In this document: positions 39,800-53,934 of the stretch, in pieces
Position numbering within the stretch: position 1 is the first letter of the stretch
Layout: every line of letters begins with the position of its first letter
Program-made: the position numbers and the translations under genes
Notes under the pieces: model-generated
Database searches by the model: none
Told to the model about the DNA's origin: nothing
What the model saw: only the letters and a program-made list of their open reading frames with translations
Source: Ornithinimicrobium pekingense DSM 21552
GTDB taxonomy: Bacteria; Actinomycetota; Actinomycetes; Actinomycetales; Dermatophilaceae
Length of the DNA stretch: 64,000 nt
Reading direction: 5' to 3'
NCBI RefSeq assembly: GCF_000421185.1
Contig: NZ_ATWJ01000009.1
Span: 250,868-314,867, forward strand

Positions 39800-41380
39800 T
39801 CACTCGCCCAGGAAGACGCCGTTCCCCGGGCCGAGCGGCAGGTCGGCGAAGTACCAGACGCCCGCCAGGGTCGCCCACGCCAGCCAGAAGGGCACGACGA
39901 ACGGCAGCAGCCGGGCGATGACGGTGCCCAGCCCGGCATCGGGCTCGTAGCGGCGCAGCAGGCCCAGGATGACGATCATGTAGGGGTTGAGCGGCGTGAT
40001 GACCTGGGTCGCAGAGTCACCGACGCGGAACGCCGCCTGGGTGAAGGCCGGCTCCAGGCCGATGAGGGCGAACATCGGCACGAAGACCGCTCCCATCAGC
40101 GTCCACATGGACGAGCCGGAGATGATGAAGAGGTTGAGCAGCGAGGCCAGCAGGATGAAGCCGAGGACGGCGGGGAAGCCGGTCAGGCCGCTGGCCTGCA
40201 GTCCCTCGGCGCCGCGGACGGCGATCCACGACCCCAGCCCGCTCCAGGCGAAGAGCGCGATGAACTGGCCCAGGATGAAGGCCAGGACGAGGAAGCTCAT
40301 CATGTCCCCCAGCGCCTGGCCCATCATCGTGACGGCGTCCTTCATCGACCGCAGCACACCCATCACGCGCCCGTAGACGGCGCCCATGAGCATGAAGTAG
40401 GCGACGACGATGAAGACGATCGAGGACAGCAGCGGCGAGCGGGGCAGGAAGCCGCCCTCCTCGTTGCGCCACGGCGACCCGGGCAGGAGGACCGCCACCA
40501 GCAGCAGTGCGGTGAACGCCAGCCCGGCCAGGAGGGACAGGCGCAGCGCCGTGTTCTCCCGCGGGCTCAGCTCGGCCCTCGGCTCCTCCGCGACCTCGCG
40601 CTCGCCCTCCTGCGCCTCCTCCGAGCGCTCGGTGGTCACCCCCTGGCGCACCAGCCGCGGCTCGAGCACCTTGTCGATGATGAAGCCGCACAGCATGCCC
40701 AGCACGATCGCGGCGGCGATGTTGAAGTAGTAGTTCGAGACGGGGTTGACCGGGGCGTACTCGATCCCCGGCAGCGTCTCCATGACCGCGGTCGTGATGC
40801 CGGCGAACAGCGCGTCGAGCGAGGTCGGCACGAGCGCGGTGGAGTAACCCGCGCCCACCGCGGCGAAACCGCCGAGCAGACCGGCCACGGGGTGACGGCC
40901 GGCCGCCTTGAAGACCAGCGCGGCCAGCGGCGGCACGACGATGAAGGCGGAGTCGGCCATGATGGAGGCGGTCACGCCGACGAGGCCGACGACGTAGGGC
41001 AGCATCCAGCGCGGCGCGGAGCCGAACGACTTGCGCACGACGGCGCCGAGCATGCCGGTCTTCTCCGCGATGCCCACGGCGAGCAGGATCGGCAGCACGG
41101 TCTTCAGCGGCGGGAAGCCGAGGTAGTTCTCCCCCAGGTTGGAGGTGAACCAGGCCAGACCCTCGCCGGTGAACAGGCCCTGCATCACCACCGGCTCGCC
41201 GTCACCGCCGGGCACGACGACGGAGACGTCGGACCACGCCATTGCGGTGGAGATCACCCCGGTGAGCAGGAAGAGGATGACGAAGAGGGTGAACGGCTCG
41301 GGCAGCTTGTTGCCGACGTTCTCGACGCCCGTGAGCATCCGGTCGGTGAAGGTGCGACGTTCGGTGGTCGTGCTGCTCAT
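39800..41380 (-). CDS. AbgT family transporter (p-aminobenzoyl-glutamate type)
   Basis: 526 residues, about 11-12 membrane helices. AbgT family: VENVGNKLPEPFTLFVILFLLTG at the N-terminus, the cytoplasmic acidic loop, and a C-terminal core with GDSATQVITPLNPYMIVILGLLRRYEPDAGLGT. E. coli AbgT imports p-aminobenzoyl-glutamate; other members export sulfonamides. ATG has CAGGAG upstream. It is the last gene of an operon with the M20 hydrolase 89 bp upstream and the ATP-grasp gene before that. Confidence 0.88.
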   Translation of the reverse strand: MSSTTTERRTFTDRMLTGVENVGNKLPEPFTLFVILFLLTGVISTAMAWSDVSVVVPGGDGEPVVMQGLFTGEGLAWFTSNLGENYLGFPPLKTVLPILLAVGIAEKTGMLGAVVRKSFGSAPRWMLPYVVGLVGVTASIMADSAFIVVPPLAALVFKAAGRHPVAGLLGGFAAVGAGYSTALVPTSLDALFAGITTAVMETLPGIEYAPVNPVSNYYFNIAAAIVLGMLCGFIIDKVLEPRLVRQGVTTERSEEAQEGEREVAEEPRAELSPRENTALRLSLLAGLAFTALLLVAVLLPGSPWRNEEGGFLPRSPLLSSIVFIVVAYFMLMGAVYGRVMGVLRSMKDAVTMMGQALGDMMSFLVLAFILGQFIALFAWSGLGSWIAVRGAEGLQASGLTGFPAVLGFILLASLLNLFIISGSSMWTLMGAVFVPMFALIGLEPAFTQAAFRVGDSATQVITPLNPYMIVILGLLRRYEPDAGLGTVIARLLPFVVPFWLAWATLAGVWYFADLPLGPGNGVFLGE

Positions 41381-41469
41381 GGCACTCCTGCAGGGTCAGG
41401 GTGGGGCAGGTCGGGGTGGGGCGGTAGGACGTCAGGGGTATGCGGTCGCGCCGGGGCGGGCGCGGTCGG

Positions 41470-42819
41470 TCAGGCGAAGTAGGTGGCCGGGTCGAGCGGG
41501 CCGCCGGCGTCGGCAAACTCCTGGGCGACGGCGGTGGCCAGCTCGTCGTCGGCCAGGAAGTCCCACGCCGAGTGGGCCAGGCCGATGGCGCCGTCGACCG
41601 CGGCCGCCTCACCGCGCGGCCCGCCGGCGGCGTCGGCGAACTCCCGCGTGTGCAGGGCCTGGTCGGGCGTGCCCACGGCGATCATGGGGTGGATGCCGGG
41701 GACCCGGACGCTGACGTTGCCGAAGTCGGTGGAGGCGGCGAGGACGTCTGGGACGACCCCGGCGGGCAGCACCTCGCGCCCGCGCTCGGCGAGCGACCTC
41801 GCCCAGTGGGCACCGAGGGTGAGGTTGCCGCGCACGGGCAACGACGGCGGGTAGTGGTCCCACTCGACCTCGACCGAGGTGTCGGTCATCATCGCCGCGC
41901 CGTGCATGATCCGCTCGACGCGGGCGGACAGGTCCAGGAGCGTCTCGGGGTAGGCCGAGCGCACGTAGAGCTGCATGGTGGAGCTGTCGGTGATGATCGA
42001 GGGTCGCGTGCCGCCGTCGGTGATCACGGCGTGGACGCGGTCCGAGGGCGGCATCTGCTGCCGCAGCAGCCCGATCGCTTGGTAGGCGAGGCTGGCGGCG
42101 TCCAGCGCGTTGCGGCCCTGGAACGGCTGGGCGGAGGCGTGCGCCGGCTGCCCGGTGAAGGTGACCCGGAGCAGGCGGCGACCGATGAAGAGCACGTCGA
42201 CCACGTCATACCCGTAGGGGTGCGTCATCACGGCCGCGTCCAGTCCCTCCCACGCGCCCTCGGCGGCCATGACCTCCTTGCCGGAGTGACCCTCCTCGGC
42301 GGGGGTGCCGAGGAAGACGACCTTGCCCTCCACCTGGCTGCTGCCCGAGGAGATCAGCCGGGCCAGCGCCACGAAGGCGCCCACGCCCGTCGCGGCGATG
42401 ACGTTGTGCCCGCACGCGTGCCCGATCTCCGGCAGGGCGTCATACTCGCTGAGCACGGCCACCGTGCGGTGCCGCTGCGGGTCGAACCCCGCGGTGGCGA
42501 CCTCCGCGCGCAGGGCGGTGGGCACGCCGTGGGCGCCGGTCTGCACCGCCGCCCCGGTGAGGTTCGTGATGACCTCGGCCAGCAGCGCCGCGGAGCGGGT
42601 CTCCTCGAACGCCACCTCGGGGTCGGCGTGCAGGGTCCGCACGATGCGGTGCAGCTCGCCGGCGGCCTCCTCCACCGTCGCGGTCAGGTGGCTTCGGTCA
42701 GCCTTCGGCGCCCCGGCGAAGGGGGTCGACGGAGGCTCGGCGGCGGCCATCGTCGCCTGCGTCTGGGCCTCGAGCCGGTCGAGGAAGGCGGTGGAGACCG
42801 ACGGCCGTGACGCGTTCAT
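41470..42819 (-). CDS. M20 family amidohydrolase (AbgB/PM20D2-like)
   Basis: 449 residues. M20D zinc hydrolase: HADPEVAFEE, SEYDALPEIGHACGHNVIAATGVGA, GTPAEEGHSGKEVM with the catalytic Glu, HPYG, and a dimerisation domain with TFTGQPAHASAQPFQGRNALDA. AbgB-like members split p-aminobenzoyl-glutamate; PM20D2-like ones act on beta-alanyl dipeptides. Pairing with AbgT favours aminobenzoyl-glutamate or related amide hydrolysis, as inference. Preceded by a short leader; TATA-rich GTGTATATC just upstream. Confidence 0.88.
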   Translation of the reverse strand: MNASRPSVSTAFLDRLEAQTQATMAAAEPPSTPFAGAPKADRSHLTATVEEAAGELHRIVRTLHADPEVAFEETRSAALLAEVITNLTGAAVQTGAHGVPTALRAEVATAGFDPQRHRTVAVLSEYDALPEIGHACGHNVIAATGVGAFVALARLISSGSSQVEGKVVFLGTPAEEGHSGKEVMAAEGAWEGLDAAVMTHPYGYDVVDVLFIGRRLLRVTFTGQPAHASAQPFQGRNALDAASLAYQAIGLLRQQMPPSDRVHAVITDGGTRPSIITDSSTMQLYVRSAYPETLLDLSARVERIMHGAAMMTDTSVEVEWDHYPPSLPVRGNLTLGAHWARSLAERGREVLPAGVVPDVLAASTDFGNVSVRVPGIHPMIAVGTPDQALHTREFADAAGGPRGEAAAVDGAIGLAHSAWDFLADDELATAVAQEFADAGGPLDPATYFA

Positions 42820-42863
42820 GCCGGGCACGATATACACGCGTCCGGCCGCGCCGCCATCTGATC

Positions 42864-43841
42864 TCAGACGCCGCTGGTCACCACCGGGCTGGCGAGGGAG
42901 GCGAGGTAGCGGGCCAGCGTGCGCGGCGCGGAGCGCGGAGCCACCGCCTCGACCGCGGCGTTGTAGTTGGTGTTGGTGTTGACGTCGTAGGTGAGCAGCC
43001 GCCCGTCGACGGACTCGATGAACTCGATCCCGCACACCTCGATGCCGTTGGTCCGGGCGAACTCGATGTACTGGTCGATGATCGGGTGGTCGAAGCCCTC
43101 CCGCAGGGAGAACAGCTGCTGGTCGGCCTCAGGCTCGACCGTGGCGCCGGGAGGCATGATCGGGCGGCCGGTCTCGGGGTCGATGGCGCACGCGTCGGCC
43201 GGGCAGAGCTGGAAGCCGCCGCGCGCGGTGTCGGCGTCGATGGCGTAGACGAACTCGCCGCCGACGATCTCGACGCGCGTGATCCGCGGTTCCCGCGCGA
43301 CGACGAACTCCTGGACCAGCGTGATGCCGTCCTGCGGCTCCTCGAACTCCTCGGACTCCACATAGGCCACCAGCTCGTCGTAGGTGTCGAACCGGCGCAC
43401 CCCCAGGCCCTTTCCGCCCTGGTTGTGCTTGGTGACGAACGGGGTCGGGAAGCCCTGGGCGGCGCGCAGCACCTGGTCACGGCCGATCGCGGCCACCGTG
43501 CGCGGGGTCTGGATGCCCGCGGCCCGCAGCGCCGTGAGCTGGTCGACCTTGCTCATCTCCAGCTCCAGGACCCGGCGGCCGTTGACCGTGCGCCGACCGT
43601 GCGACTCGAGCCAGGACAGCACCGCGCGGGTGTAGTCCTTGGACAACCCGTGGTCCCGGGTGTGCGCGGAGGCGCTGATCCGCGACCAGAAGATCCCCTC
43701 CGGCGGGCTCGCACCAAGGTCGAGGGTGCCCTCGGTGAGCAGCCACTCCTCGACCTCCACGCCCTCCTCGGCGAAAGCCTGGGCGAAGGGCGGGAACCAC
43801 TCGGGGTTCTCGTGCAGGGCGTAGATCCTGGGGGCGGTCAT
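42864..43841 (-). CDS. RimK-like ATP-grasp ligase
   Basis: 325 residues. ATP-grasp fold: TPFVTKHNQGGKGLGVRRF (ATP-binding loop), VQEFV with adenine-binding region, ITRVEIVGGEFVYAIDAD, and metal-binding GIEFIESVDGRLLTYDVNTNTNYN. RimK-type enzymes ligate glutamate or other amino acids to carboxyl groups. ATG 43841 lies 44 bp upstream of the M20 gene in the same direction, so a ligase, a hydrolase and a transporter are probably co-transcribed. Substrate unknown. Confidence 0.8.
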   Translation of the reverse strand: MTAPRIYALHENPEWFPPFAQAFAEEGVEVEEWLLTEGTLDLGASPPEGIFWSRISASAHTRDHGLSKDYTRAVLSWLESHGRRTVNGRRVLELEMSKVDQLTALRAAGIQTPRTVAAIGRDQVLRAAQGFPTPFVTKHNQGGKGLGVRRFDTYDELVAYVESEEFEEPQDGITLVQEFVVAREPRITRVEIVGGEFVYAIDADTARGGFQLCPADACAIDPETGRPIMPPGATVEPEADQQLFSLREGFDHPIIDQYIEFARTNGIEVCGIEFIESVDGRLLTYDVNTNTNYNAAVEAVAPRSAPRTLARYLASLASPVVTSGV

Positions 43842-43922
43842 GGCACGGTCAACACGGTGAGGGGCGGCTCGTGTTCCCCCGCGGTGGCTCAAGAGGGGCG
43901 CCGCGCGCGCCCTCCCGCACCG

Positions 43923-44041: not shown

Positions 44042-46180
44042 TCAGCTGCCGCCCACGGCCTCGGTGGCACCCAGCTGGTCGACCATGAACGCGATCTCGA
44101 AGGCGGTCTCGCGCCACGCGTCATACCTGCCCGTCTTGCCTCCGTGGCCGGCGACCATCTCGGTCTTGAGCAGGATCGGCCGCTCGGCGGGGTCGTTGGT
44201 GACGGTCTCGCGCAGGCGCGCGACCCACTTGGCCGGCTCGACGAAGAAGACGCGCGTGTCGTTGAGGCCGGTGGTCGCCAGGATCGCCGGGTATGCGGTC
44301 TCGCGGATGTTCTCGTAGGGGCTGTAGGAGCGCATGATCTCGTAGATCTCGGCCGACTCGACCGGGTTGCCCCACTCCTCCCACTCGCCCACCGTCAGCG
44401 GCAGGGCCGGGTTGAGGATGGTCGTGAGCGCGTCGACGAAGGGGACGCCGGCGTGGACGACGCGGAAGCGCTCCGGTGCGAGGTTGAGCACCGCACCCAT
44501 GAGCAGGCCGCCGGCGGAGCGGCCCTCGGCCGCGAGCCGGTCCGGCGCGACCCAGCCGCTCTCGACGAGGTGGTCGGCGCAGGTGACGAAGTCGGTGAAG
44601 GTGTTGCGCTTGTGCTCCATGCGACCGGTCTCGTACCAGCCACGCCCCATCTCGCCGCCGCCGCGCACGTGCGCGATCGCGTAGACGACACCGCGGTCGA
44701 GGTAGGACAGGCGCGACACCGAGAAGTAGGGGTCGATGGAGATCTCGTAGGAGCCGTAGCCGTAGATGAGCCCGGGGTTGGTGCCGTCGGGCCGCACGTC
44801 CTTGCGGGCGACGAGCGAGATCGGGATCTGCGTGCCGTCCGCGGCGGTCGCCCAGAGGCGGTGCTGCTGGTAGTCGGCCGGGTCGAAGTCGCCGAGGACC
44901 GGCTGGCGCTTGACCAGGTCGAGCTCGCCGCTGACCAGGTCGAGGTCGTAGATGCTGCGCGGGGTGACCAGCGACTCGACCACGACCTGCAGCGTCTCGG
45001 TGTCGTAGGTGGGGTTGGCACCGGTCTCGATCGAGTAGACCTCCTCCTCGACCGGCACCTGGTAGCCGTGCCCGACGGGCAGTCCGGCGGCCGAGAGCGG
45101 CAGGACCTGCACCTGGGTCAGCCCGTCGCGTCGCAGCGACAGCGCCAGGTGCCCGGAGAAGGCCTCGACGCCGCTGACCCGCACGCCCTCCTCACCCGGG
45201 ATCACGGTGCGCCAGTCCTGCGCCGAGGTGCTCTCCAGCGGGGCGACCGCCAGCTCGAAGTCGCGGTGCTCGCGGTTGTGCACGATCCACAGCCGACCGC
45301 CGGCCGGCTCGACCTCGTACTCCACACCCTCCTGCCGGGGCGCGACCACGCGGAACTCGCCCAGCGGGTCCTCCGCCGACAGCAGCCGGAACTCGGAGGT
45401 GTTCTTGCTGCCCAGGCCGATGACGACGTGCCGGTCGTCGCGCGAGCTGCCCACGCCCATCCAGAAGCGCTCGTCGTCCTCCTGGTAGACGAGCACGTCG
45501 CTGTCGGCCGCCGCGCCGACCTCGTGCCGCCACACCTGGAAGGGGCGCCACGCGTCGTCGACACGGGTGTAGAAGATGTGCGCCGCGTCGGCCGACCAGG
45601 CCGTCCCGTAGCCGATCCCGGTGACGGCCTCGTCGATGACCTCGCCGGTCGCCAGGTCCTTGATGCGCAGGTCGAAGCGCTCGTCACCGCTGGTGTCGAC
45701 GGCGTAGGCCAGCCGGTCGCCGGAGGCGCTGACGTCGAAGGCGCCGAGGGAGAAGAACTCCAGGCCCTCGGCCTCCGCGTTGCCGTCGAGCAGCACCTGC
45801 TCACCCTCTGGGGTCGCCCCCGGGTCGAGCACGGGGCGGTCGGGTGACTCGCCGACCGCGATCCGGCCGTGCACGGCATACTGCTGGCCCTCGATCGTGC
45901 GCGTGTAGTACCACCAGTCGCGGTGGCGCACCGGCACCGACAGGTCGGTCTCCTGGGTGCGGCCCTTGATCTCGCCGAAGATCGACTCGCGCAGGCCCTC
46001 CAGGTGAGCGGTCATCGCCTCGGTGTAGGAGTTCTCCGCGGTGAGGTGCGCGACGACGTCCGGGTCCTCCTTGTCGCGCAGCCACTCGTAGGGGTCGGTG
46101 ACGTCCTCCCCGTGGTGGCTGCGGACGGTGTCGCGGCGTTCGGCGACGGGCGGGAGGGGGCGCGTGGTCTCGGCAGTCAC
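44042..46180 (-). CDS. ptrB: Oligopeptidase B (S9A)
   Basis: 712 residues, full-length prolyl oligopeptidase family serine peptidase cutting short peptides after basic residues. N-terminal beta-propeller (about 70-410), C-terminal alpha/beta hydrolase with GGGEMGRGWYE, nucleophile Ser in EGRSAGGLLMG, Asp in LNDTRV and His in GHGGKTGR. GTG 46180 lies seven bases after TAGCGT (46188-46193), so leaderless. Upstream neighbour is the 2OG oxygenase operon with a 61-bp gap. Confidence 0.93.
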   Translation of the reverse strand: MTAETTRPLPPVAERRDTVRSHHGEDVTDPYEWLRDKEDPDVVAHLTAENSYTEAMTAHLEGLRESIFGEIKGRTQETDLSVPVRHRDWWYYTRTIEGQQYAVHGRIAVGESPDRPVLDPGATPEGEQVLLDGNAEAEGLEFFSLGAFDVSASGDRLAYAVDTSGDERFDLRIKDLATGEVIDEAVTGIGYGTAWSADAAHIFYTRVDDAWRPFQVWRHEVGAAADSDVLVYQEDDERFWMGVGSSRDDRHVVIGLGSKNTSEFRLLSAEDPLGEFRVVAPRQEGVEYEVEPAGGRLWIVHNREHRDFELAVAPLESTSAQDWRTVIPGEEGVRVSGVEAFSGHLALSLRRDGLTQVQVLPLSAAGLPVGHGYQVPVEEEVYSIETGANPTYDTETLQVVVESLVTPRSIYDLDLVSGELDLVKRQPVLGDFDPADYQQHRLWATAADGTQIPISLVARKDVRPDGTNPGLIYGYGSYEISIDPYFSVSRLSYLDRGVVYAIAHVRGGGEMGRGWYETGRMEHKRNTFTDFVTCADHLVESGWVAPDRLAAEGRSAGGLLMGAVLNLAPERFRVVHAGVPFVDALTTILNPALPLTVGEWEEWGNPVESAEIYEIMRSYSPYENIRETAYPAILATTGLNDTRVFFVEPAKWVARLRETVTNDPAERPILLKTEMVAGHGGKTGRYDAWRETAFEIAFMVDQLGATEAVGGS

Positions 46181-46241
46181 CCGCCCAACGCTACCTGTGC
46201 GTCGCCGAGTTCGGGTATGCAGCACGCGCTCGGGTGCTCGC

Positions 46242-46886
46242 TCACCCCGCGACGAAGCACAGCGCCGAGATGATGCGGGTCCCGCCCGGGTCGACCGGCA
46301 GGGTCTCGTGGGGCAGCAGACCGCCGAGCAGCACGATGCTCTGGCCGGGAGCGGCCTTGACCAGGCCCAGGCCGACCTCGCCGAGCCTGCGGACCTCGTG
46401 CAGGTCCCGGCCCAGGTGGGCGGCGTGGACGAGCAGCCCGCCCGAGGGCCGGTCTGGTCCCGCGTCGTCGCGCAGCACGCTGATCAGGGTGACGTCGCAG
46501 GTCTCGATGTCCAGGTGCAGCCCGAGGTGGTCGCCGGGGTGCACGTAGTAGCTGTAGCTGCCGCGGGTGCCTGTCGGGCGGACCCGGGTCCCGCACAGGT
46601 GCGAGAGATAGTCGCTGAGCCACGGCGCGTTGTAGAGCGCGTCCTGCACCGGGCCGCCGCCGGAGGTGTACAGGTGCCGCGCCGGGGTGCCTCCACGACC
46701 GGCGGTCCCGTCGTCGACGTCGACGTCCTGCCGGTCGGACTCTGCGTAGCGACTGTGCGCCTCCTGCGTCAGCGCCCCGAGCACACCCGGCTCGGGCAGC
46801 CCGTCGACGACCATGACGCCGCCGGCCGCCCCCACGGGGCCGCGCAGCAGGCGCTGCGCGGCCCCGGGCAGGGTCGCCGTGCTCAT
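46242..46886 (-). CDS. 2-oxoglutarate/Fe(II)-dependent oxygenase-like protein
   Basis: 214 residues. Double-stranded beta-helix oxygenase: Fe ligands H124 and D126 in HLGLHLDIETCDVT, distal H193 in LLPHETLP, 2OG-binding R204 in GGTRIISA. Resembles prolyl-hydroxylase-type members in layout. ATG overlaps the stop of the prodomain-like gene (ATGA); it is the last gene of a four-gene operon with a subtilase that has a proline-rich tail, its possible substrate (inference). Confidence 0.78.
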   Translation of the reverse strand: MSTATLPGAAQRLLRGPVGAAGGVMVVDGLPEPGVLGALTQEAHSRYAESDRQDVDVDDGTAGRGGTPARHLYTSGGGPVQDALYNAPWLSDYLSHLCGTRVRPTGTRGSYSYYVHPGDHLGLHLDIETCDVTLISVLRDDAGPDRPSGGLLVHAAHLGRDLHEVRRLGEVGLGLVKAAPGQSIVLLGGLLPHETLPVDPGGTRIISALCFVAG

Positions 46887-47239
46887 GTCGGCTCCGGACC
46901 GTGCAGCTCGGCGGGCCGCTCGAGGGCGACGGCGACGAGCTCGCGCTGCAGGTCCTCCGGCAGGCCGGAGAGGGGCAGCTCGTCACCGACCTCCGTCGTC
47001 CAGCCCCCGTCGGCCGCCGGCACCGGTGCGACGCCGAAGGTGTCCTCGAAGGTCGCGACCGGTGCCTCGACCGCGAAGGTCGGGCCGCTGGCCGGGCCGC
47101 AGGCGAAGCCTGCCTCGGTCAGACGACCGGCGACCGCGTCGACGGCCTCGGTCGTCCGGGCCAGGACGAGGGCCACGACGGCCCTGCCCCCGTCGCCGTG
47201 GTCCGGCGGCGGCGACGGCACCGAGGGTGGGACGGACAT
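46883..47239 (-). CDS. Free prodomain-like protein
   Basis: 118 residues with a Pro-rich start. The core AVDAVAGRLTEAGFACGPASGPTFAVEAPVATFEDTFGVA aligns with subtilase residues 84-120 (VQQAAAALEDAGFTVLQV...QTFEQAFGA), the S53-like/subtilase prodomain pattern of a beta-alpha-beta fold. It could act in trans as chaperone or inhibitor of the protease. GTG/ATG start: ATG 47239 lies 12 bp after the subtilase stop; its own stop overlaps the oxygenase start. No catalytic motif. Confidence 0.6.
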   Translation of the reverse strand: MSVPPSVPSPPPDHGDGGRAVVALVLARTTEAVDAVAGRLTEAGFACGPASGPTFAVEAPVATFEDTFGVAPVPAADGGWTTEVGDELPLSGLPEDLQRELVAVALERPAELHGPEPT

Positions 47240-47251
47240 GCTCGGCCTCCC

Positions 47252-49240
47252 TCAGATCTCGGGCGGGTTGTCGGACTCGATGATGAAGCGCTCCAGCTCG
47301 GCCAGGTCCTCGGCGGTGATGCCAGAGCCCTGGCCGGGGGCCGGCGCGGCGCCGGGCTGCTCCATACCCATGGCCTGCTCGGCACCACCCATGACCTGCT
47401 CGGCGCCGTAGGCCTGCTGACCCGGCTCCTGCCATCCCGGCTGCTCCTCGAAGGGGCCGGGGTCGATCGGCGGCCGGAAGGGCAGCACCGGCGGCCGGAA
47501 CGGCAGGATCGGCCCGATGACGGGGTGGAACGGCCGCACCGGGCCGATCGCCGGGTGGATGGGGCGCACCGGCCCGATCGCCGGGTGGATCGGGCGCACC
47601 GGCAGCGTCGGCAGCACCGGACGGAACGGGCGCACCGGGCCGATCGCCGGGTGGATCGGCACGACGGGCACGACCGGACCGACGATGCAGCGCAGCTTGG
47701 CGATGAGCACCGCGCGGTGGGCGTCGACGAGCCCGTTGCCGGTGGCGGTGTCCGGCCCCACCACCGCGGAGTTGCCGAAGTTGGGGTGGTTGGTGCCCTG
47801 GGTGACGTCCCGGGCGGTGTCCATGAGCACCTGGCGCACCTGCGCCGGGGTCAGCCGCGCGCACACCTGCCGGATCAGCGCGCAGACGCCGGCGATCTGC
47901 GGGCAGGAGGCACTGGTGCCGCTGAAGGCGCCCCATCCGTCGTTCGTCGCCGTCTCGTCCCCGTTGGGGTGCGTGCCGCCGCCGCTGCCCTGGTCGATGG
48001 CGCAGCCGGCCGGGATGGGCAGCATGAGGTAGGCGGCTCTGGGCAGCATCCCCACCAGTCCCGAGACGTCGGGCACTCGGCGGCCGGGGTAGATGTTGGA
48101 CATGAAGCCGCTGGAGTAGTCGGAGGCCTCGAGCGTGCCGTCCGGACGCCGGTGCACCCCGCCGACGGAGATGACGTCGGGGTGCTGCCCGGGGAAGCCC
48201 CAGCCGCCGTTGCTGGCGGAGAAGCAGACGATGATGCCGTTGGCCACCGCGCCGGCGACGGCCGCGGCGAGCGCCTGGTTGGCCGCGCTGAGCGGCCCGA
48301 ACCGCTGGCTCGAGCCCCAGCTGTTGGTGATGATGTGGGGGTTCAGTGCTGCCGCGGCGTTGAAGGCCGCGGTGACGTTGACGAGCGCACCCGAGGCGGT
48401 CGCCGTCTTGACCGGGTAGAGCGTGATGTCGGGGGCGGTGGCGAAGATGTTGGCCGACTCCCCCGTCCCGTGACCGTTCTCGTCGATCGTCGGGTCGGCC
48501 GTGCCCGGGCCGAGCGTGGTCGGCTCGACGCGGTAGCCGTGGTCGGTGAAGAAGGCATGGTCCTGGAAGCCGGTGTCGACCATCGCGACCCGGATGCCCT
48601 TGCCGGTGATGCCGTTGCGGTGCGGCCGCTCGGCGTTGAGCGCCACAGACACGTCGTCGGGGACGCGCAGGTGCCAGTAGTCGACGATCGGCGGCAGGGA
48701 CAGCGGCGCGTGCAGGTAGTAGGGCTCCTCGATCGCGACACCCTCCAGCACCTGGGCGAACTCGGTGCCCTCGGTCTCGACGAGGCCGGGCACCGCGGTG
48801 TCGGCGTTGTCGATGAAGGTCGCCTCCGCCTCCACCGCACCCGGCTTGATGACGGCCCTCTGCTCGGTGAAGAGGTGCGCACCGAAGGCCTGCTCGAAGG
48901 TCTGCGCGTCCCCGGCGAAGTTGATGAGCAGGTTGCTGACCTGCAGCACCGTGAAGCCGGCGTCCTCCAGCGCGGCGGCGGCCTGCTGGACGTCGTCGTC
49001 GGAGGAGACGAAGGCGTCGACGGTCTCGGCGGTCGCCACCACGTCGGGGGTGAAGAGGGAGGTCCCACCCACGGACGGGGGCGAGGCCACCGCATAGATG
49101 AGGTCGGGGAAGTCCCGACCCCGCCCGGACGAGCGCGGCGAGCTGCCCTTCCCCTTCGCGGCGCTCCTGGACCTGGTCGTGCTCTTCGTGGTCCTGCGGG
49201 TGCTGTTGCCTGTCGCCGGGTTGTCGTCGTCGTTGGCCAT
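47252..49240 (-). CDS. Subtilisin-like (S8) protease with proline-rich repeat tail
   Basis: 662 residues. No signal peptide: a polar basic N-terminus (1-43), a kumamolisin-like prodomain region (44-180), then an S8 domain with catalytic D222 (VAMVDTG), H257 (NGHGTGESAN), oxyanion N344 (SASNGGWG) and S443 (SGTSASCPQIAG). The tail at 521-597 has 26 Pro in 77 residues with three copies of a ten-residue unit IHPAIGPVRP (529-538, 551-560, 561-570), then a Gln/Gly/Pro-rich part and a charged C-terminus. ATG has AGGAGCTAG upstream and starts two bases after the glycosyltransferase stop. Confidence 0.87.
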   Translation of the reverse strand: MANDDDNPATGNSTRRTTKSTTRSRSAAKGKGSSPRSSGRGRDFPDLIYAVASPPSVGGTSLFTPDVVATAETVDAFVSSDDDVQQAAAALEDAGFTVLQVSNLLINFAGDAQTFEQAFGAHLFTEQRAVIKPGAVEAEATFIDNADTAVPGLVETEGTEFAQVLEGVAIEEPYYLHAPLSLPPIVDYWHLRVPDDVSVALNAERPHRNGITGKGIRVAMVDTGFQDHAFFTDHGYRVEPTTLGPGTADPTIDENGHGTGESANIFATAPDITLYPVKTATASGALVNVTAAFNAAAALNPHIITNSWGSSQRFGPLSAANQALAAAVAGAVANGIIVCFSASNGGWGFPGQHPDVISVGGVHRRPDGTLEASDYSSGFMSNIYPGRRVPDVSGLVGMLPRAAYLMLPIPAGCAIDQGSGGGTHPNGDETATNDGWGAFSGTSASCPQIAGVCALIRQVCARLTPAQVRQVLMDTARDVTQGTNHPNFGNSAVVGPDTATGNGLVDAHRAVLIAKLRCIVGPVVPVVPIHPAIGPVRPFRPVLPTLPVRPIHPAIGPVRPIHPAIGPVRPFHPVIGPILPFRPPVLPFRPPIDPGPFEEQPGWQEPGQQAYGAEQVMGGAEQAMGMEQPGAAPAPGQGSGITAEDLAELERFIIESDNPPEI

Positions 49241-49242
49241 TG

Positions 49243-50211
49243 CTAGCTCCTGGTGTGCATGGGCATGAGCACCGCCGTGGGCGTGGACCGGTGGGCGAGC
49301 CAGCCCAGCGCGGTGCGGGTGTCGGTGGAGAAGTAGTGGCAGAGCAGCCAACGGTCGACCGGGGTCGCCCCCGGGTCGGCCAGCTCACCGTTCTGCGCGA
49401 CGTGCGCGGGCGACAGGAACCCGGTGGTCAGCCCGGGGAGGGCGCCCAGCGAGAGCCAGGTGGCGACCTCCTCGACGATCCACTGGTTCGCCGACGGATA
49501 GGGCAGCGCCCGCGCGCGCTGCTCCCCCGAGGCCAGCAGGTGGGCGGCCTCGACACGCTCGAGCGTGCCGTAGCCGCTGCCCGCCGTGTGGGCGGGCGTG
49601 AGCGACATCCACACCACGAGGTGCCAGACGCACCGGACAAACCACTCGTGCAGCGCCGCCAGGTGCGTGCTGCGGCCGTGGTTGAGCAGGACCACCCCGG
49701 TGTTGAAGGGGGGTATGGCGTGCACGCCCAGCCCGTGCACGAGGCGCAGCAGCGCGGGCAAGTCGAGGAAGTCCCGGTCCGGGCCGTAGCGGCTGGGGCC
49801 GGTGTGCACCTCCTCGCGGGCGTAGACGTCGGCCTCGGTGTAGCGGGCGGCCAGGTCCTCGACGTCGCCGGCGAAGAGGGTGTCGGCGTCGCAGCACAGC
49901 ACCCGGTCGACAGGGCCCAGGGCGCCGTGGGACAGGAACTTGTGCAGCGTCGGGTTCGCGGCCAGCACCGGCCAGCCCTCGGGGCACAGCGAGGCGAGGC
50001 GGGCGGCATACGAGCCCATCTCGAGGAGGTCCGCACCGTAGGTGCGGCAGATCTCCGGCAGCCCGGCGGGAGGCTCGTCGTGGACGAGGACGACCGCGGG
50101 GACGCGGGTGTTGTGCCGGCGCAGGCTCCACAGGCTGGTCCGCAGCTGGTCGAGCAGCCGGGACGGGTCCGTGGCCGGATCGAACGAGAGCGAGTACTGC
50201 ACCAGCATCAT
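49243..50211 (-). CDS. GT-A fold glycosyltransferase-like protein
   Basis: 322 residues. Nucleotide-sugar binding DxD motif at 108-110 (VDRVLCCDADTLF), followed by FNTGVVLLN (169-177), as in GT8-like and related enzymes. Donor and acceptor unknown. First gene of the operon with the subtilase; ATG ATG start after GGGGAGGC. If it modifies the protease tail, the DxD plus operon context would make sense, but this is untested. 138-bp upstream region holds two hairpins and follows dnaE. Confidence 0.75.
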   Translation of the reverse strand: MMLVQYSLSFDPATDPSRLLDQLRTSLWSLRRHNTRVPAVVLVHDEPPAGLPEICRTYGADLLEMGSYAARLASLCPEGWPVLAANPTLHKFLSHGALGPVDRVLCCDADTLFAGDVEDLAARYTEADVYAREEVHTGPSRYGPDRDFLDLPALLRLVHGLGVHAIPPFNTGVVLLNHGRSTHLAALHEWFVRCVWHLVVWMSLTPAHTAGSGYGTLERVEAAHLLASGEQRARALPYPSANQWIVEEVATWLSLGALPGLTTGFLSPAHVAQNGELADPGATPVDRWLLCHYFSTDTRTALGWLAHRSTPTAVLMPMHTRS

Positions 50212-50241
50212 GCCTCCCCGAAAGGGCCCGATACCGCTGGG

Positions 50242-50313
50242 GGCTCATGCTCCTCCTGAGCCGAACCCGCGCGCAAGACCCATCTGCGCAGAGACGGGGC
50301 GACCGGCGCAGAT
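50242..50313. terminator. Two hairpins between dnaE and the glycosyltransferase gene
   Basis: GGCTCA/TGAGCC arms (50242-50262) and ATCTGCGC/GCGCAGAT arms (50282-50289, 50306-50313). They lie in the 138-bp gap after the dnaE stop; they may stop dnaE transcription before the four-gene operon. Confidence 0.5.
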
Positions 50314-50349
50314 ACGCCCTCTACGCCGGCCGGCCGGCGACCTCCGGGG

Positions 50350-53300
50350 TCAGCCGCTGATGCAGGCCGGCCCGAGCAGCGCCTTCAGCTCGCCGAAGAG
50401 CTCCGCCGAGGCTTTCACCCGCAGCGACTCGTCGAGCTTGAGCAGCACGTTGCGTCCTGGCTGCACCAGGTTGACGTGCACCTCGGTGCTGCCCGGATGG
50501 TTGGTCAGGACGCCCTTGAGCTTGTGCGCGAGCCCGTCGGTGGCGCGGGACAGCGGCATGTTGAGCACGACCGGCCCGCGCGGGCCCTGCTTGATGTCGG
50601 GCAGCATCAGCTCGTTGGCGAGCAGCTCGGAGCCGTCGTCGCCCTTCTTGAGCCGGCCCTTGACCACGGCGACGGTGTCCTCGGCCAGCATCGTCGAGAT
50701 CGTCATGTAGGTCTTGGGCCAGAAGACGACGTCGATCGAGCCGGCCATGTCCTCGATGGACAGGCGGGCGTAGGGGTCGCCGTTCTTGGTGCGCTTGAGC
50801 TGCAGGTTGGTCATCATCCCCGCGACGGTGATGAAGTCACCGTCCTTGGCCCCGTCCTCGCCCACGATCTCCAGGATCGAGGCGCTGGCGTGCTGGGACA
50901 GGATGTGCTCGATGCCGTTGAGCGGGTGGTCGGAGACGTAGAGGCCGAGCATCTCCCGCTCGAAGGCAAGCAGCACCGACTTGTCCCACTCCAGGGAGGG
51001 CACCGGTGGCAGGGTGACGATCTGCATGCTCTCGTCGGGCTGCCCGTCGTCGCCGAAGCCGAACCCGGAGAACAGGCTGTCCTGCCCGATCGCCTCCTGG
51101 CGCTTCTCGTCCACGAGCGCCTCGACATACCTCTCGTGCACGCTGACCAGACCCTGGCGGGTGTGCCCGAGGCTGTCGAACGCGCCGGCCTTGCACAGCG
51201 ACTCGATGGTCCGCTTGTTGCAGACGACCACCGGCGACTTGCGCAGGAAGTCCTCGAAGGAGGTGAACTCCCCCTTCTCCTCGCGCGCAGCCACGATCCC
51301 GGCGACGACGTTGCGGCCGACGTTGCGGATCGCGGAGAGGCCGAAGCGGATGTCGTCGCCGACCGCGGCGAAGTTGGCGACCGACTGGTTCACGTCGGGC
51401 GGCAGCACCGCGATGCCCATCCGCCGGCACTCGGCCAGGTAGAGCGCGGTCTTGTCCTTGTCGTCGCCCACGCTGGTGAGCAGGGCTGCCATGTACTCGG
51501 CCGGGTAGTTGGCCTTGAGGTAGCCGGTCCAGTAGGAGATGACGCCGTAGGCCGCGGTGTGGGCCTTGTTGAACGCGTAGTCGGAGAAGGGGACCAGCAC
51601 GCCCCACAGCGCGGCGATCGACGCCTCGTTGTAACCGTTGGCCTTCATGCCCTCGGAGAAGGGGACGTACTCGGCGTCGAGCACCTCCTTCTTCTTCTTG
51701 CCCATCGCCCGGCGGAGCAGGTCGGCGTTGCCGAGCGTGTACCCCGCGAGCTTCTGGGCGATCTCCATCACCTGCTCCTGGTAGATGCAGAGACCGTAGG
51801 TGTTGCCCAGGATCGGCCCGAGCGCCTCCTCCATCTGCGGCTGCAGCTTGCCCTTCAGCTGCGGGTCGAGCGGGACGACCTCCTGCTGGCCGTTCTTGCG
51901 CAGGGCGAAGTTGGTGTGGGCGTTCACGCCCATCGGGCCGGGCCGGTAGAGCGCGAGCGCCGCGGAGATGTCCTCGAAGTTGTCCGGGCGCATGAGCCGC
52001 AGCAGCTGGCGCATGCCGTTGCCGTCGAGCTGGAAGACGCCGAGCGTGTCACCGCGACCGAGCAGCTTGTAGGTCGCCTCGTCGGTCATGTCCTTGGACA
52101 GCGCGTCGAGGTCGATGTCCTCGCCGCGGTTGTCCTTGATGTTGTTGATCGCGTCGTCGAGGACCGTGAGGTTGCGCAGGCCCAGGAAGTCCATCTTGAC
52201 CAGCCCGAGGGTCTCGCACGTCGGGTAGTCGAACTGGGTGATGATCTGGCCGTCCTGGTCGCGGCGCATGATCGGGATGACGTCCAGCAGCGGCTCGCTG
52301 GACATGATGACGCCGGCCGCGTGCACGCCCCACTGACGCTTCAGGCCCTCCAGGCCCTTGGCGGTCTCGAAGACCTCGGCGGCATGCGGGTCCTCGACGA
52401 GCAGCTCGCGGAACTCGCCGGCCTCGCCATACCTCTTGTGGTCGGGGTCGTGGATCCCGGTGAGCGGGATGCCCTTGCCCATGACGTCCGGCGGCATCGC
52501 CTTGGTGAGCTTCTCGCCCATCGCGAAGGGGTAGCCCATCACACGCGAGGCGTCCTTGAGGGCCTGCTTGGCCTTGATCGTGCCGTAGGTGACGATCATC
52601 GCCACGCGGTCGTCGCCGTACTTCTCGGTGACGTAGCGGATGACCTCGGAGCGTCGCCGGTCGTCGAAGTCGACGTCGAAGTCGGGCATCGACCTGCGCT
52701 CGGGGTTGAGGAAGCGCTCGAAGATCAGGCCGTGGGGGATCGGGTCGAGGTCGGTGATGCCCATCGCGTAGGCGCACATGGAACCGGCACCCGAACCACG
52801 ACCCGGCCCCACCCGGATGCCGTTCTTCTTGGCCCAGTTGATGAAGTCGGCGACGACGAGGAAGTAGCCGGCGTAGCCCTTGGAGATGATCACCTCGGAC
52901 TCGTAGGCGGCCTGCTTCGTCGCGTAGTCCGGCACCCCCTCGGGGAAGCGCCGCTGCAGGCCGGTCTCAACCTCGGAGAGGAACCAGCTGGTCTCGTCGT
53001 GACCCTCGGGGCAGGGGAAGCGGGGCATGTAGCGCCCCTCCCCCTCGGTGAAGGAGATGTCGCAACGCTCGGCGACGACGAGGGTGTTGTCGCACGCCTC
53101 GGGCAGCTCGCGCCAGATGTGGCGCATCTCCTGGGCGGTCTTGAGGTAGTAGCCGTCGCCGTCGAACTTGAACCGGTTGGGGTCCTGCATCGTCGAGCCA
53201 GACTGCACGCACAGCAGCGCCGAGTGCGCCTTGGCGTCCTCCTGCGTGGTGTAGTGCAGGTCGTTGGTCGCCAGCAGCGGCAGGCTCAGCTCCTTGGCGA

Positions 53301-53934
53301 GCCTGAGCAGGTCCTGGCGCGTCTGGCGCTCGATGGCGATGCCGTGGTCCATCAGCTCGACGTAGACGTTCTCCGCGCCGAAGATGTCCTTGAGGTCGGA
53401 GGCCCACTGCACCGCCTCGTCCCACTGCCCCAGCCGCAGGCGCGTCTGCACCTCGCTGGACGGGCAGCCGGTCGTGACGATCATCCCCTGGCCGTACTGC
53501 TCCAGCAGCTCGCGGTCCATGCGCGGCTTGAAGTAGTAGCCCTCCATCGAGGCCAGCGAGGCCATCCGGAAGAGGTTGTGCATGCCGTTGTTGTTGCGCG
53601 CCAGCATCGTCATGTGGGTGTAGGCACCACCACCGGAGACGTCGTCGCGGCCACCCTCGCCGTACTTCACCCGGGTCTTGTCGGTGCGGTGCGTGCCCGG
53701 CGTCAGGTAGGCCTCGAGGCCGATGATCGGCTTGACGTCGTACTTCTGCGCGGTCTTCCAGAACTCGTAGGCGCCGAAGATGAACCCGTGGTCGGTCGTC
53801 GCGATCGCCGGCATGCCCAGGTCGGCCGCGGTGGAGAGCATGTCCTCGATCCGGGCCGCACCGTCGAGCATCGAGTACTCGGTGTGGTTGTGCAGGTGGA
53901 CGAAGTTCTGCGCGGGGCTGGCTGGCGATGACAT
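50350..53934 (-). CDS. dnaE: DNA polymerase III alpha subunit
   Basis: 1194 residues, full-length replicative DnaE1. N-terminal PHP domain (FVHLHNHTEYSMLDGAARIEDM, TDHGFIFGAYEFWKTA), catalytic region with PDFDVDFDDRRRSEVIRYV, palm and thumb domains, GVLVPFSDYAFNKAHTAAYGVISY, and a C-terminal OB domain. Essential for chromosomal replication. TAGGAT (53943-53948) is eight bases before the ATG with no ribosome-binding site: leaderless or near-leaderless. Divergent from the arsR-like gene. Confidence 0.97.
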   Translation of the reverse strand: MSSPASPAQNFVHLHNHTEYSMLDGAARIEDMLSTAADLGMPAIATTDHGFIFGAYEFWKTAQKYDVKPIIGLEAYLTPGTHRTDKTRVKYGEGGRDDVSGGGAYTHMTMLARNNNGMHNLFRMASLASMEGYYFKPRMDRELLEQYGQGMIVTTGCPSSEVQTRLRLGQWDEAVQWASDLKDIFGAENVYVELMDHGIAIERQTRQDLLRLAKELSLPLLATNDLHYTTQEDAKAHSALLCVQSGSTMQDPNRFKFDGDGYYLKTAQEMRHIWRELPEACDNTLVVAERCDISFTEGEGRYMPRFPCPEGHDETSWFLSEVETGLQRRFPEGVPDYATKQAAYESEVIISKGYAGYFLVVADFINWAKKNGIRVGPGRGSGAGSMCAYAMGITDLDPIPHGLIFERFLNPERRSMPDFDVDFDDRRRSEVIRYVTEKYGDDRVAMIVTYGTIKAKQALKDASRVMGYPFAMGEKLTKAMPPDVMGKGIPLTGIHDPDHKRYGEAGEFRELLVEDPHAAEVFETAKGLEGLKRQWGVHAAGVIMSSEPLLDVIPIMRRDQDGQIITQFDYPTCETLGLVKMDFLGLRNLTVLDDAINNIKDNRGEDIDLDALSKDMTDEATYKLLGRGDTLGVFQLDGNGMRQLLRLMRPDNFEDISAALALYRPGPMGVNAHTNFALRKNGQQEVVPLDPQLKGKLQPQMEEALGPILGNTYGLCIYQEQVMEIAQKLAGYTLGNADLLRRAMGKKKKEVLDAEYVPFSEGMKANGYNEASIAALWGVLVPFSDYAFNKAHTAAYGVISYWTGYLKANYPAEYMAALLTSVGDDKDKTALYLAECRRMGIAVLPPDVNQSVANFAAVGDDIRFGLSAIRNVGRNVVAGIVAAREEKGEFTSFEDFLRKSPVVVCNKRTIESLCKAGAFDSLGHTRQGLVSVHERYVEALVDEKRQEAIGQDSLFSGFGFGDDGQPDESMQIVTLPPVPSLEWDKSVLLAFEREMLGLYVSDHPLNGIEHILSQHASASILEIVGEDGAKDGDFITVAGMMTNLQLKRTKNGDPYARLSIEDMAGSIDVVFWPKTYMTISTMLAEDTVAVVKGRLKKGDDGSELLANELMLPDIKQGPRGPVVLNMPLSRATDGLAHKLKGVLTNHPGSTEVHVNLVQPGRNVLLKLDESLRVKASAELFGELKALLGPACISG

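What the first reader, a model, noticed from the sequence alone, without database searches (positions are those of the whole stretch)
46242..50211. Four-gene operon: glycosyltransferase, subtilase with proline repeat tail, free prodomain, 2OG-Fe(II) oxygenase
Spacings of +2, +12 and -4 bp imply co-expression. The protease has an internal prodomain, no Sec signal and a 77-residue tail with 26 prolines (IHPAIGPVRP repeats). A hydroxylase-type oxygenase and a DxD glycosyltransferase beside it suggest hydroxylation and glycosylation of the tail, resembling extensin or collagen logic. I know of no described system with this content. The alternative is a protease-modified secreted peptide system.
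Basis: partly seen in the sequence, partly recalled or inferred. Interest (0 to 1): 0.8.

Follow-up and report, generated by a model that had tools for sequence, protein, structure and literature searches.

The report
Protease cassette with proline repeat tail
A four-gene insert in a bacterial genome pairs an unusual internal protease, carrying a repetitive proline-rich tail, with a spare copy of its own regulatory domain and two likely peptide-decorating enzymes, suggesting a so far undescribed way of making modified peptides, though the chemistry is unproven.

Summary
The four minus-strand genes are real, with gaps of +2, +12 and -4 bp. They form one insert of about 4.1 kb: in the nearest relative by DnaE, dnaE and ptrB lie about 105 bp apart, and none of 27 same-genus flanks behind dnaE (1.5 kb each) matches any of the four. 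The protease belongs to a distinct S8 clade with a kumamolisin-type prodomain, spread over several phyla. Two of its settings look like peptide-product clusters: Flavisolibacter (APH kinase, HopA1 lyase, LanC, repeat protein) and Rhizobium/Mesorhizobium (small repetitive peptide, adenylating-like protein, purine enzymes). The "free prodomain" is a recurring partner, fused at the C-terminus in one genus and apparently free in Calothrix and G462. The tail has prolines every 3-4 residues and three exact IHPAIGPVRP copies; no relative examined has it. The oxygenase is probably a 2OG-Fe(II) enzyme; the glycosyltransferase call rests on motifs alone. No close relative of either was found in the genomes searched. 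Best reading: a peptide-maturation cassette whose protease carries a substrate-like tail for the oxygenase and glycosyltransferase. Hydroxylation and glycosylation of that tail are plausible but untested. Structure models were useless.

The parts
49243..50211 (-). putative GT-A type glycosyltransferase (322 aa), first gene of the cassette; DADT at residues 108-111, FNTGVVL at 169
   Evidence: sequence; motif likeness to a GT8 protein (L066) only, pairwise E 0.005 over 32 residues; no family match; no relative besides itself in 97 + 345 genomes, overlapping samples
47252..49240 (-). S8 subtilase (662 aa) with internal kumamolisin-type prodomain and repetitive Pro-rich tail; triad D222, H257, S443
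   Evidence: Pfam PF00082 2.3e-28, PF09286 0.0011 below cut-off; residues checked; family alignment; tree
48671..49108 (-). N-terminal prodomain region of the subtilase (about residues 45-190; limits approximate)
   Evidence: Pro-kuma_activ match at residues 72-124; alignment
47774..48604 (-). S8 catalytic domain (residues 213-489)
   Evidence: PF00082 match
47450..47686 (-). Pro-rich repeat tail (residues 519-597; 26 Pro in 79; IHPAIGPVRP x3 plus FHPVIGPILP)
   Evidence: absent from the 8 aligned relatives and 3 further species
47255..47449 (-). post-tail segment (residues 598-662), Gln/Gly/Met-rich then the acidic C-terminus ITAEDLAELERFIIESDNPPEI
   Evidence: no significant likeness to the Flavisolibacter repeat protein (756 of 1000 shuffles score as high)
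46883..47239 (-). 118-aa free prodomain-like protein
   Evidence: 57% identical over residues 32-114 to the C-terminal domain of a relative protease; a profile from these two, not the single sequence, finds the N-terminal prodomains
46242..46886 (-). 214-aa putative 2OG-Fe(II) oxygenase; H124, D126, H193, R204
   Evidence: H124, D126, H193 invariant against three weak relatives, one of which Pfam places in HalD; hhalign probability 97.3; 8 of 14 weak plasmid hits annotated 2OG-Fe(II) oxygenase, 7 of them from Mycetohabitans
46181..50349 (.). extent of the insert between dnaE stop and ptrB start (about 4.1 kb); neighbours are dnaE 50350-53934 and ptrB 44042-46180, both minus strand
   Evidence: empty site in same-genus genomes

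Best explanation
It is a horizontally gained, self-contained peptide-maturation cassette built on an S8 protease of a family that also occurs in RiPP-type gene clusters. The protease folds in the cytoplasm with an N-terminal kumamolisin-type prodomain that keeps it latent, and the separate 118-aa prodomain copy binds the same enzyme in trans, as inhibitor, chaperone or substrate-docking part. The C-terminal tail, a PxxP repeat expected to form an extended polyproline II rod, is the peptide that the cassette works on: the oxygenase hydroxylates residues in the repeats (Pro, or an aliphatic or His side chain), the glycosyltransferase adds sugar to the new hydroxyl groups, and the protease then releases the modified peptide by self-cleavage, or keeps it as a modified appendage. 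Shown here: gene order, the insert as a unit, the protease family, the repeat, and (by profile) the prodomain duplication. Supported but not proven: the 2OG oxygenase identity. Inferred: the glycosyltransferase identity, the tail as substrate, hydroxylation followed by glycosylation, release, and that the insert was gained rather than lost by the others.
For: Four tightly packed genes with +2/+12/-4 bp spacing. They are absent from the dnaE-ptrB gap of same-genus genomes: of 28 other genomes, ptrB follows dnaE within about 110 bp in 8 and at 0.9-1.1 kb in 2, is not within the 1.5 kb held in 17, and 1 has no flank; none of the 27 flanks hits any of the four genes at 1e-5. Sequence likeness to relatives stops near the dnaE stop codon and resumes some tens of bases after the oxygenase gene. 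A relative protease (50% identity) in Flavisolibacter stands beside a 494-aa Cys/Thr/Pro-rich repeat protein, an APH kinase (2.6e-10), HopA1 (1.6e-35) and LanC-like (4.3e-62) genes; APH + HopA1 enzymes dehydrate a lanthipeptide precursor in vitro (PMC9486802, abstract and passages). Rhizobium and Mesorhizobium relatives stand near 88- and 83-aa Ala/Glu/Ser repeat peptides. A prodomain copy recurs: fused C-terminally in 4 species of one genus, apparently free in Calothrix and G462. The tail repeat is non-random and was seen only beside the two enzymes. The best-covered weak relative of the oxygenase (84% of it, E 0.07) lies between radical SAM/HEXXH peptide-modification genes and a TPR gene in Paracoccus.
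Against: Only one example of tail plus enzymes exists in what was searched, so the association cannot be tested statistically. Most settings of the protease that I read have no recognisable peptide-modifying neighbour: the four-species genus, G374, G462, Calothrix, Nonomuraea. The tail has no Ser and only one Thr, so any sugar must sit on a hydroxylated or otherwise unusual residue. Tail and post-tail show no sequence likeness to the Flavisolibacter repeat protein. I noticed no transporter or separate precursor gene among the four genes; no search for a RiPP recognition element was run. The glycosyltransferase rests on motifs only, and PF13640 and PF01501 give no match in the window's genome even at E 10. 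The 118-aa protein alone (phmmer) finds only the fused C-terminal domain, not the prodomains, and the prodomain region alone finds nothing in plasmids at 1e-3.
Confidence: 0.38

Rival explanations
1. The cassette is a peptide- or protein-processing unit, but the tail is not the substrate: it is a polyproline II spacer or docking rod that brings the oxygenase, glycosyltransferase and free prodomain to the protease, and the modified target is another protein or peptide encoded elsewhere.
For: RiPP-like relatives have the repetitive protein as a separate gene; the tail lacks Ser and has one Thr; Pro-rich rods are common linkers (general knowledge). Regular PxxP spacing suits a binding rod as well as a substrate.
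Confidence: 0.27
2. A conflict or defence-like unit: a latent intracellular protease, held by a second prodomain, is set free by a trigger; oxygenase and glycosyltransferase modify the tail or the prodomain as the sensor or lock.
For: Sporadic distribution and presence as a block, free inhibitor-like prodomain next to a protease, patchy spread across phyla. The protease matches PADLOC's 'subtilase' model (9e-11, catalytic part), which may ring for subtilases in general (not tested).
Against: The other three proteins match no PADLOC model at 0.01; protease relatives in one genus are single genes with shared neighbours; two settings look biosynthetic.
Confidence: 0.12
3. An extensin/collagen-like structural system: the protease tail is hydroxylated on proline and glycosylated to make a stiff, protease-resistant rod, with no peptide release.
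For: Prolines at every third or fourth position, an oxygenase of probable 2OG type and a DxD protein alongside.
Against: No Gly-X-Y pattern and no Ser-Pro3-5 pattern in the tail; no signal-like start by eye, so not visibly a wall protein; the oxygenase matches no prolyl hydroxylase family in Pfam.
Confidence: 0.13
4. The two flanking genes are mis-named: the 322-aa and 214-aa proteins are not a glycosyltransferase and an oxygenase, and the cassette is only a protease with an accessory prodomain and two unknown partners.
For: No family library matches for either; single-sequence structure models have mean pLDDT 36.8 and 32.7 and give no support.
Against: HxD...H of the 214-aa protein is invariant against three weak relatives, one of which Pfam places in HalD (6.6e-13), hhalign 97.3%; the DADT and FNTGVVL motifs resemble those of a GT8 protein, though at different spacing (61 against 50 residues).
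Confidence: 0.1

Closest known systems
Class V lanthipeptide-type cluster with S8 protease (here in Flavisolibacter nicotianae, L017)
   Same: A related S8 protease (50% identity over residues 15-523) beside a repetitive, substrate-like protein and dedicated modifying enzymes
   Different: There the repeat protein is a separate gene rich in Cys/Thr/Pro and the enzymes are APH kinase, HopA1 lyase and LanC; in the window the repeat is fused to the protease, has no Cys or Ser, and the enzymes differ
S8 leader proteases of RiPPs (NisP, ElxP, PatA/PatG, AmyP), as reviewed in PMC10885120 (passages seen)
   Same: Subtilisin-fold protease dedicated to a peptide pathway; ElxP is likewise cytoplasmic
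   Different: The passages seen did not describe a kumamolisin-type prodomain, a second free prodomain or a repeat tail; the review's main text had 0 hits for 'prodomain' and 'kumamolisin'
Pro-kumamolisin (S53) activation domain, PF09286
   Same: Prodomain of the protease and, weakly, the 118-aa protein match it (E 0.0011 and 0.29, both below the curated cut-off)
   Different: The catalytic domain is S8, not S53, and one prodomain copy is free-standing
2OG-Fe(II) oxygenases of the HalD kind (Mycetohabitans relative L026)
   Same: HxD...H motif, Arg in the same column as R204, 25% identity over 211 residues
   Different: The window protein itself scores with no Pfam model; of three weak relatives scanned only this one has a HalD/2OG match
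Extensins / collagens (hydroxyproline glycoproteins; general knowledge and search listing)
   Same: Pro-rich repeat with a putative hydroxylase and glycosyltransferase nearby
   Different: No Gly-X-Y or Ser-Hyp4 repeat, no signal-like start seen, fused to a probably intracellular protease; modification not shown

Membership tests
S8 subtilase | Peptidase_S8 domain with Asp-His-Ser triad | tested here: met
   PF00082 2.3e-28; D222, H257, S443
RiPP cluster | precursor peptide with leader and core | tested here: inconclusive
   No separate small precursor seen within the insert; the Pro tail is a candidate core in cis, untested
RiPP cluster | peptide-modifying enzymes in the same operon | tested here: inconclusive
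   Oxygenase supported by motif and hhalign; glycosyltransferase by motif only
Class V lanthipeptide | APH-type kinase plus HopA1-type lyase | tested here: not met
   Present in Flavisolibacter, absent from the four window genes
2OG-Fe(II) oxygenase | HxD/E...H metal triad | tested here: met
   H124, D126, H193 present and invariant in alignment A1 of four sequences
2OG-Fe(II) oxygenase | 2OG-binding Arg/Lys about ten residues after the second His | tested here: inconclusive
   R204 lies 11 after H193; same column as an Arg in 1 of 3 relatives, the other two have Arg or Lys one column earlier
2OG-Fe(II) oxygenase | double-stranded beta-helix fold | tested here: inconclusive
   Model pLDDT 32.7, unusable
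Prolyl 4-hydroxylase | match to a P4H family | tested here: not met
   No Pfam match of any kind
Prolyl 4-hydroxylase | hydroxylation of peptidyl proline | not testable with these tools
   needs an assay
GT8-like glycosyltransferase | PF01501 family match | tested here: not met
   No match in the own genome at E 10, first look found no candidate
GT-A glycosyltransferase | DxD metal motif in a GT-A fold | tested here: inconclusive
   DADT at 108 with GT-like flanks; fold model unusable, pLDDT 36.8
Extensin / collagen-like protein | Ser-(Hyp)3-5 or Gly-X-Y repeats and secretion signal | tested here: not met
   Tail sequence; N-terminus without a signal-like stretch by eye

The most novel reading that the evidence does not exclude
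A protease that carries its own repetitive polyproline peptide as a fused substrate, which dedicated partners hydroxylate and then glycosylate, with a second prodomain in trans timing the protease: a precursor-in-cis peptide pathway that would make hydroxylated, glycosylated proline-repeat peptides in a bacterium.
Probability: 0.27. Interest if true: 0.78.

Novelty: new variant of a known kind. Interest (0 to 1): 0.55.

Why it matters
If the tail is modified, bacteria would have a compact route to hydroxylated and glycosylated proline-repeat peptides, chemistry mostly known from plants and animals, and a peptide pathway whose precursor is fused to its protease. Even without that, the survey shows an S8 subfamily spread over several phyla with a recurring second prodomain copy and some links to peptide-natural-product clusters, which gives a handle for finding new clusters.

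Tried and rejected
Glycosyltransferase relatives: 1 of 97 near genomes (own only, 30 other members of the genus among them); 2 of 345 class genomes (own plus G219, whose hit lies on the other strand of what reads by eye as a DNA polymerase I gene, with a stop inside, taken as chance); none in plasmids or phages at 1e-5; 11 plasmid records at E 10, with unrelated or no annotation; none in viral contigs by peptide pattern. GT8 (PF01501) occurs in 1 of 98 class genomes at 1e-10. Oxygenase relatives: 1 of 198 order genomes (own); 2 of 236 class genomes (own plus G330, E 5.6e-4 over 111 residues with a stop inside, taken as chance, not examined further); none in plasmids or phages at 1e-5 or viral contigs by pattern.

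The 118-aa protein: 4 of 198 order genomes (own, G137, and G148 and G162 at about 6e-4, which I did not follow up). Single-sequence phmmer found only the G137 C-terminal domain among 9 domains; the two-sequence profile that found the others was run with filters off on 9 targets and included a little of the G137 catalytic end. The prodomain region of the protease alone gave no plasmid match at 1e-3.

Structure prediction of the oxygenase and the 322-aa protein (single sequence) gave mean pLDDT 32.7 and 36.8; I ran no fold search on such models. The idea that the tail or post-tail resembles the Flavisolibacter repeat protein was tested and failed (594 and 756 of 1000 shuffles score as high). tblastn of the tail against the relative loci without composition correction gave a few weak hits of low complexity (best E 0.001, in L020 and elsewhere in the window, none at the end of a protease), taken as chance. 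The downstream S9 peptidase ptrB was set aside as a member because dnaE-ptrB adjacency exists without the cassette. Promoter and terminator scans found nothing. The Flavisolibacter repeat protein has no plasmid match at 1e-3. Literature: searches gave 0 papers; some searches gave listings in which I saw no description of this gene combination (titles and abstract starts only).

Limits: the protease searches scored only 3 candidates per genome, so relatives may be missed. Of 13 plasmid records with a protease relative I fetched 6. The genome-contig scan finds close relatives only and returned 1. One of the genome's five S8 genes (L001) dropped out of the tree because my ORF filter found no frame for it. 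Of 28 same-genus loci, L057 has only 5 bases behind dnaE and tells nothing.
Full report
OBSERVATION. The window has four tightly packed genes on the minus strand between dnaE (50350-53934, named from its sequence by eye) and a prolyl oligopeptidase-family gene (ptrB, 44042-46180; S9 domains by Pfam, oligopeptidase B by NCBIfam below that model's cut-off): a 322-aa protein, an S8 protease of 662 aa, a 118-aa protein and a 214-aa protein. Gaps are +2, +12 and -4 bp. GC3 is 0.92-0.97, against 0.965-0.969 in the neighbours. The protease carries the triad D222, H257, S443, a prodomain matching Pro-kuma_activ weakly (E 0.0011, under the Pfam cut-off), and a tail at residues 519-597 with 26 prolines in 79 residues. 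Three exact IHPAIGPVRP copies occur, and 0 of 10,000 shuffles of the tail give any repeated 10-mer. 22 of 25 proline spacings are 3 or 4; 0 of 10,000 shuffles reach that. This spacing would put prolines on one face of a polyproline II helix (inference from general knowledge).

THE UNIT. I looked behind dnaE in 30 genomes of the genus; 29 gave a match, one of them the window's own. Of the 28 others, 8 have ptrB within about 110 bp of dnaE on the same strand (in one, L058, the distance is estimated past a partial dnaE match), 2 have it at 0.9-1.1 kb, 17 have no ptrB within the 1.5 kb held, and 1 (L057) has no flank. None of the 27 flanks matches any of the four genes (tblastn 1e-5). The nearest by DnaE (G571, 91%) has the two genes about 105 bp apart; the second nearest (G585, 88%) has no ptrB in the flank. 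Alignments show likeness ending near the dnaE stop and resuming some tens of bases after the oxygenase stop, just before ptrB. The four genes therefore fill an insert of about 4.1 kb. Gain in this lineage is the simplest reading, since the first gene is in 1 of 97 near genomes, the window's own.

THE PROTEASE FAMILY. Relatives were found in 5 of 396 genomes of the order (own plus four of one genus, 57-63% identity), 3 of 394 of the class (own, G374, G462), one named genome by pattern scan (Flavisolibacter nicotianae, 50%) and 13 plasmid records (Calothrix, Nonomuraea, Rhizobium x8, Paenibacillus, Mesorhizobium, Aminobacter). In a tree of 16 rows, the 13 family members separate from three other subtilases of the same genome (100/99); order inside the clade is partly open, and two rows have long branches. 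None of the 8 relatives aligned, nor three further species, has the proline tail; the Paenibacillus C-terminus was not judged. Where the tail begins, the four-species genus has instead a C-terminal domain 55-58% identical to the 118-aa protein.

THE SECOND PRODOMAIN. A profile of the 118-aa protein and that C-terminal domain finds the N-terminal prodomains and the free partners (domain E 6e-7 to 6e-3, filters off, only 9 targets); the single 118-aa sequence finds only the fused domain. The alignment shows a shared A-x-x-L-x-x-x-G-F/L ... F/W-E-x-x-F-like pattern. In Calothrix an annotated hypothetical protein (103 aa, 244 bp upstream of the protease) and in G462 an ORF called by my script (123 aa, 14 bp upstream) show the same pattern. 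A duplicated prodomain, free or fused, is thus probably a recurrent companion. That it acts as inhibitor, chaperone or docking part is inference.

RiPP LINKS. In Flavisolibacter the protease is followed by a 494-aa protein with repeated blocks of Cys/Thr/Pro-rich sequence and by genes that Pfam names APH (2.6e-10), HopA1 (1.6e-35) and LANC_like (4.3e-62). APH-like CaoK and HopA1-like CaoY dehydrate the class V lanthipeptide precursor CaoA in vitro (PMC9486802, abstract and passages). In Rhizobium and Mesorhizobium the protease lies near an 88- or 83-aa Ala/Glu/Ser-repeat protein and a 496- or 492-aa protein (weak AMP-binding match, 9e-4 and below cut-off, for the first; none for the second) and purine-pathway genes. 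S8 proteases are known for leader removal (PMC10885120, passages). The other settings read (the four-species genus, G374, G462, Calothrix, Nonomuraea, Paenibacillus) show no clear peptide-modifying set, so the link holds for some members and is not universal.

THE TWO ENZYMES. The 214-aa protein has no family match. In a plasmid scan at E 10 it gave 14 records; 8 lie under features annotated 2OG-Fe(II) oxygenase (7 Mycetohabitans, 1 Metabacillus), while the best E (6e-3, Cupriavidus) has no annotation. Alignment with three relatives keeps H124, D126 and H193. R204 shares its column with an Arg in the Mycetohabitans protein; the other two have Arg or Lys one column earlier. Of the three relatives scanned, Pfam places only the Mycetohabitans one in HalD (6.6e-13). 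A profile of four relatives aligns with hhalign probability 97.3; they were picked from a large scan, so pairwise E-values (3e-9, 9e-10) overstate. The relative covering most of the protein (84%, E 0.07) lies beside a radical SAM protein and a 'HEXXH motif-containing putative peptide modification protein' in Paracoccus yeei. The 322-aa protein is called a glycosyltransferase only from DADT in a hydrophobic setting and FNTGVVL, resembling a GT8 protein of another genome (32 residues, E 0.005, motif spacing 61 against 50); PF01501 does not match. Structure models were unusable.

DOES THE TAIL GO WITH THE ENZYMES? tblastn of the glycosyltransferase and oxygenase against 13 relative loci found neither at E 1, and none of the 11 relative proteases read has the tail. 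So tail and enzymes are present together once and absent together elsewhere: consistent with the tail as their substrate, but a sample of one. The tail's lack of Ser and single Thr means that a sugar would need a hydroxyl made by the oxygenase; that gives the gene set an internal logic, but it is inference.

MECHANISM. I commit to a peptide-maturation cassette with the substrate-like repeat fused to the protease (0.38), against a docking-rod reading (0.27) and others. Hydroxylation, glycosylation and release are all unshown. Against the extensin/collagen picture: no Gly-X-Y or Ser-Pro repeats and no visible signal. A defence reading stays open: the protease rings PADLOC's subtilase model (9e-11), the other three proteins ring none. 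For membership: it is an S8 subtilase; it is not a class V lanthipeptide cluster; RiPP membership stays open because no precursor has been shown.

NOVELTY. In the open-access library searched I saw no paper that combines these features (with 0 papers; 31, 74, 75, 77, 98, 107 listings only). I rate it a new variant of a known kind, with a bolder reading kept open.

Noticed in passing
L021 4972-14559 and L024 (Rhizobium leguminosarum plasmids); L023 2810-13599 (Mesorhizobium): A protease of this family sits with a small Ala/Glu/Ser-repeat peptide, an adenylate-forming-like protein and purine enzymes; in Rhizobium also FolE, adenylosuccinate synthetase and lyase, QueE, QueC, IMPDH and a nitrile hydratase alpha subunit (PF02979 6.3e-50). 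It looks like a peptide-linked purine or deazapurine pathway; one literature search gave 0 papers.
   Followed up: partly
L017 7986-14578 (Flavisolibacter nicotianae): Class V lanthipeptide-like set (APH, HopA1, LanC) with a 494-aa repeat protein as possible multi-core precursor and an S8 protease.
   Followed up: partly
L029 100-4069 (Paracoccus yeei plasmid): Radical SAM + HEXXH peptide-modification protein + unannotated 212-aa oxygenase-like protein + TPR protein: a likely RiPP cluster.
   Followed up: partly
L022 7866-9890 (Paenibacillus amylolyticus plasmid): Protease of this family, with further matching sequence just past its annotated end, followed by a protein with a weak tyrosinase-domain match (PF00264, 3.1e-4, below cut-off) annotated as Tat pathway signal protein.
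   Followed up: no
L009 and L010 (G162, G148): Weak matches (about 6e-4) to the 118-aa protein inside longer open frames in two genomes of another family of the order.
   Followed up: no
window 50283-50312: Palindromic TCTGCGCAGA and a second GCGCAGA in the short gap between dnaE and the first cassette gene; could be an operator or chance.
   Followed up: no
window 39800-43892: AbgT-like transporter, M20-type amidohydrolase and ATP-grasp-like protein in a row downstream of ptrB; functions read from sequence by eye only.
   Followed up: no
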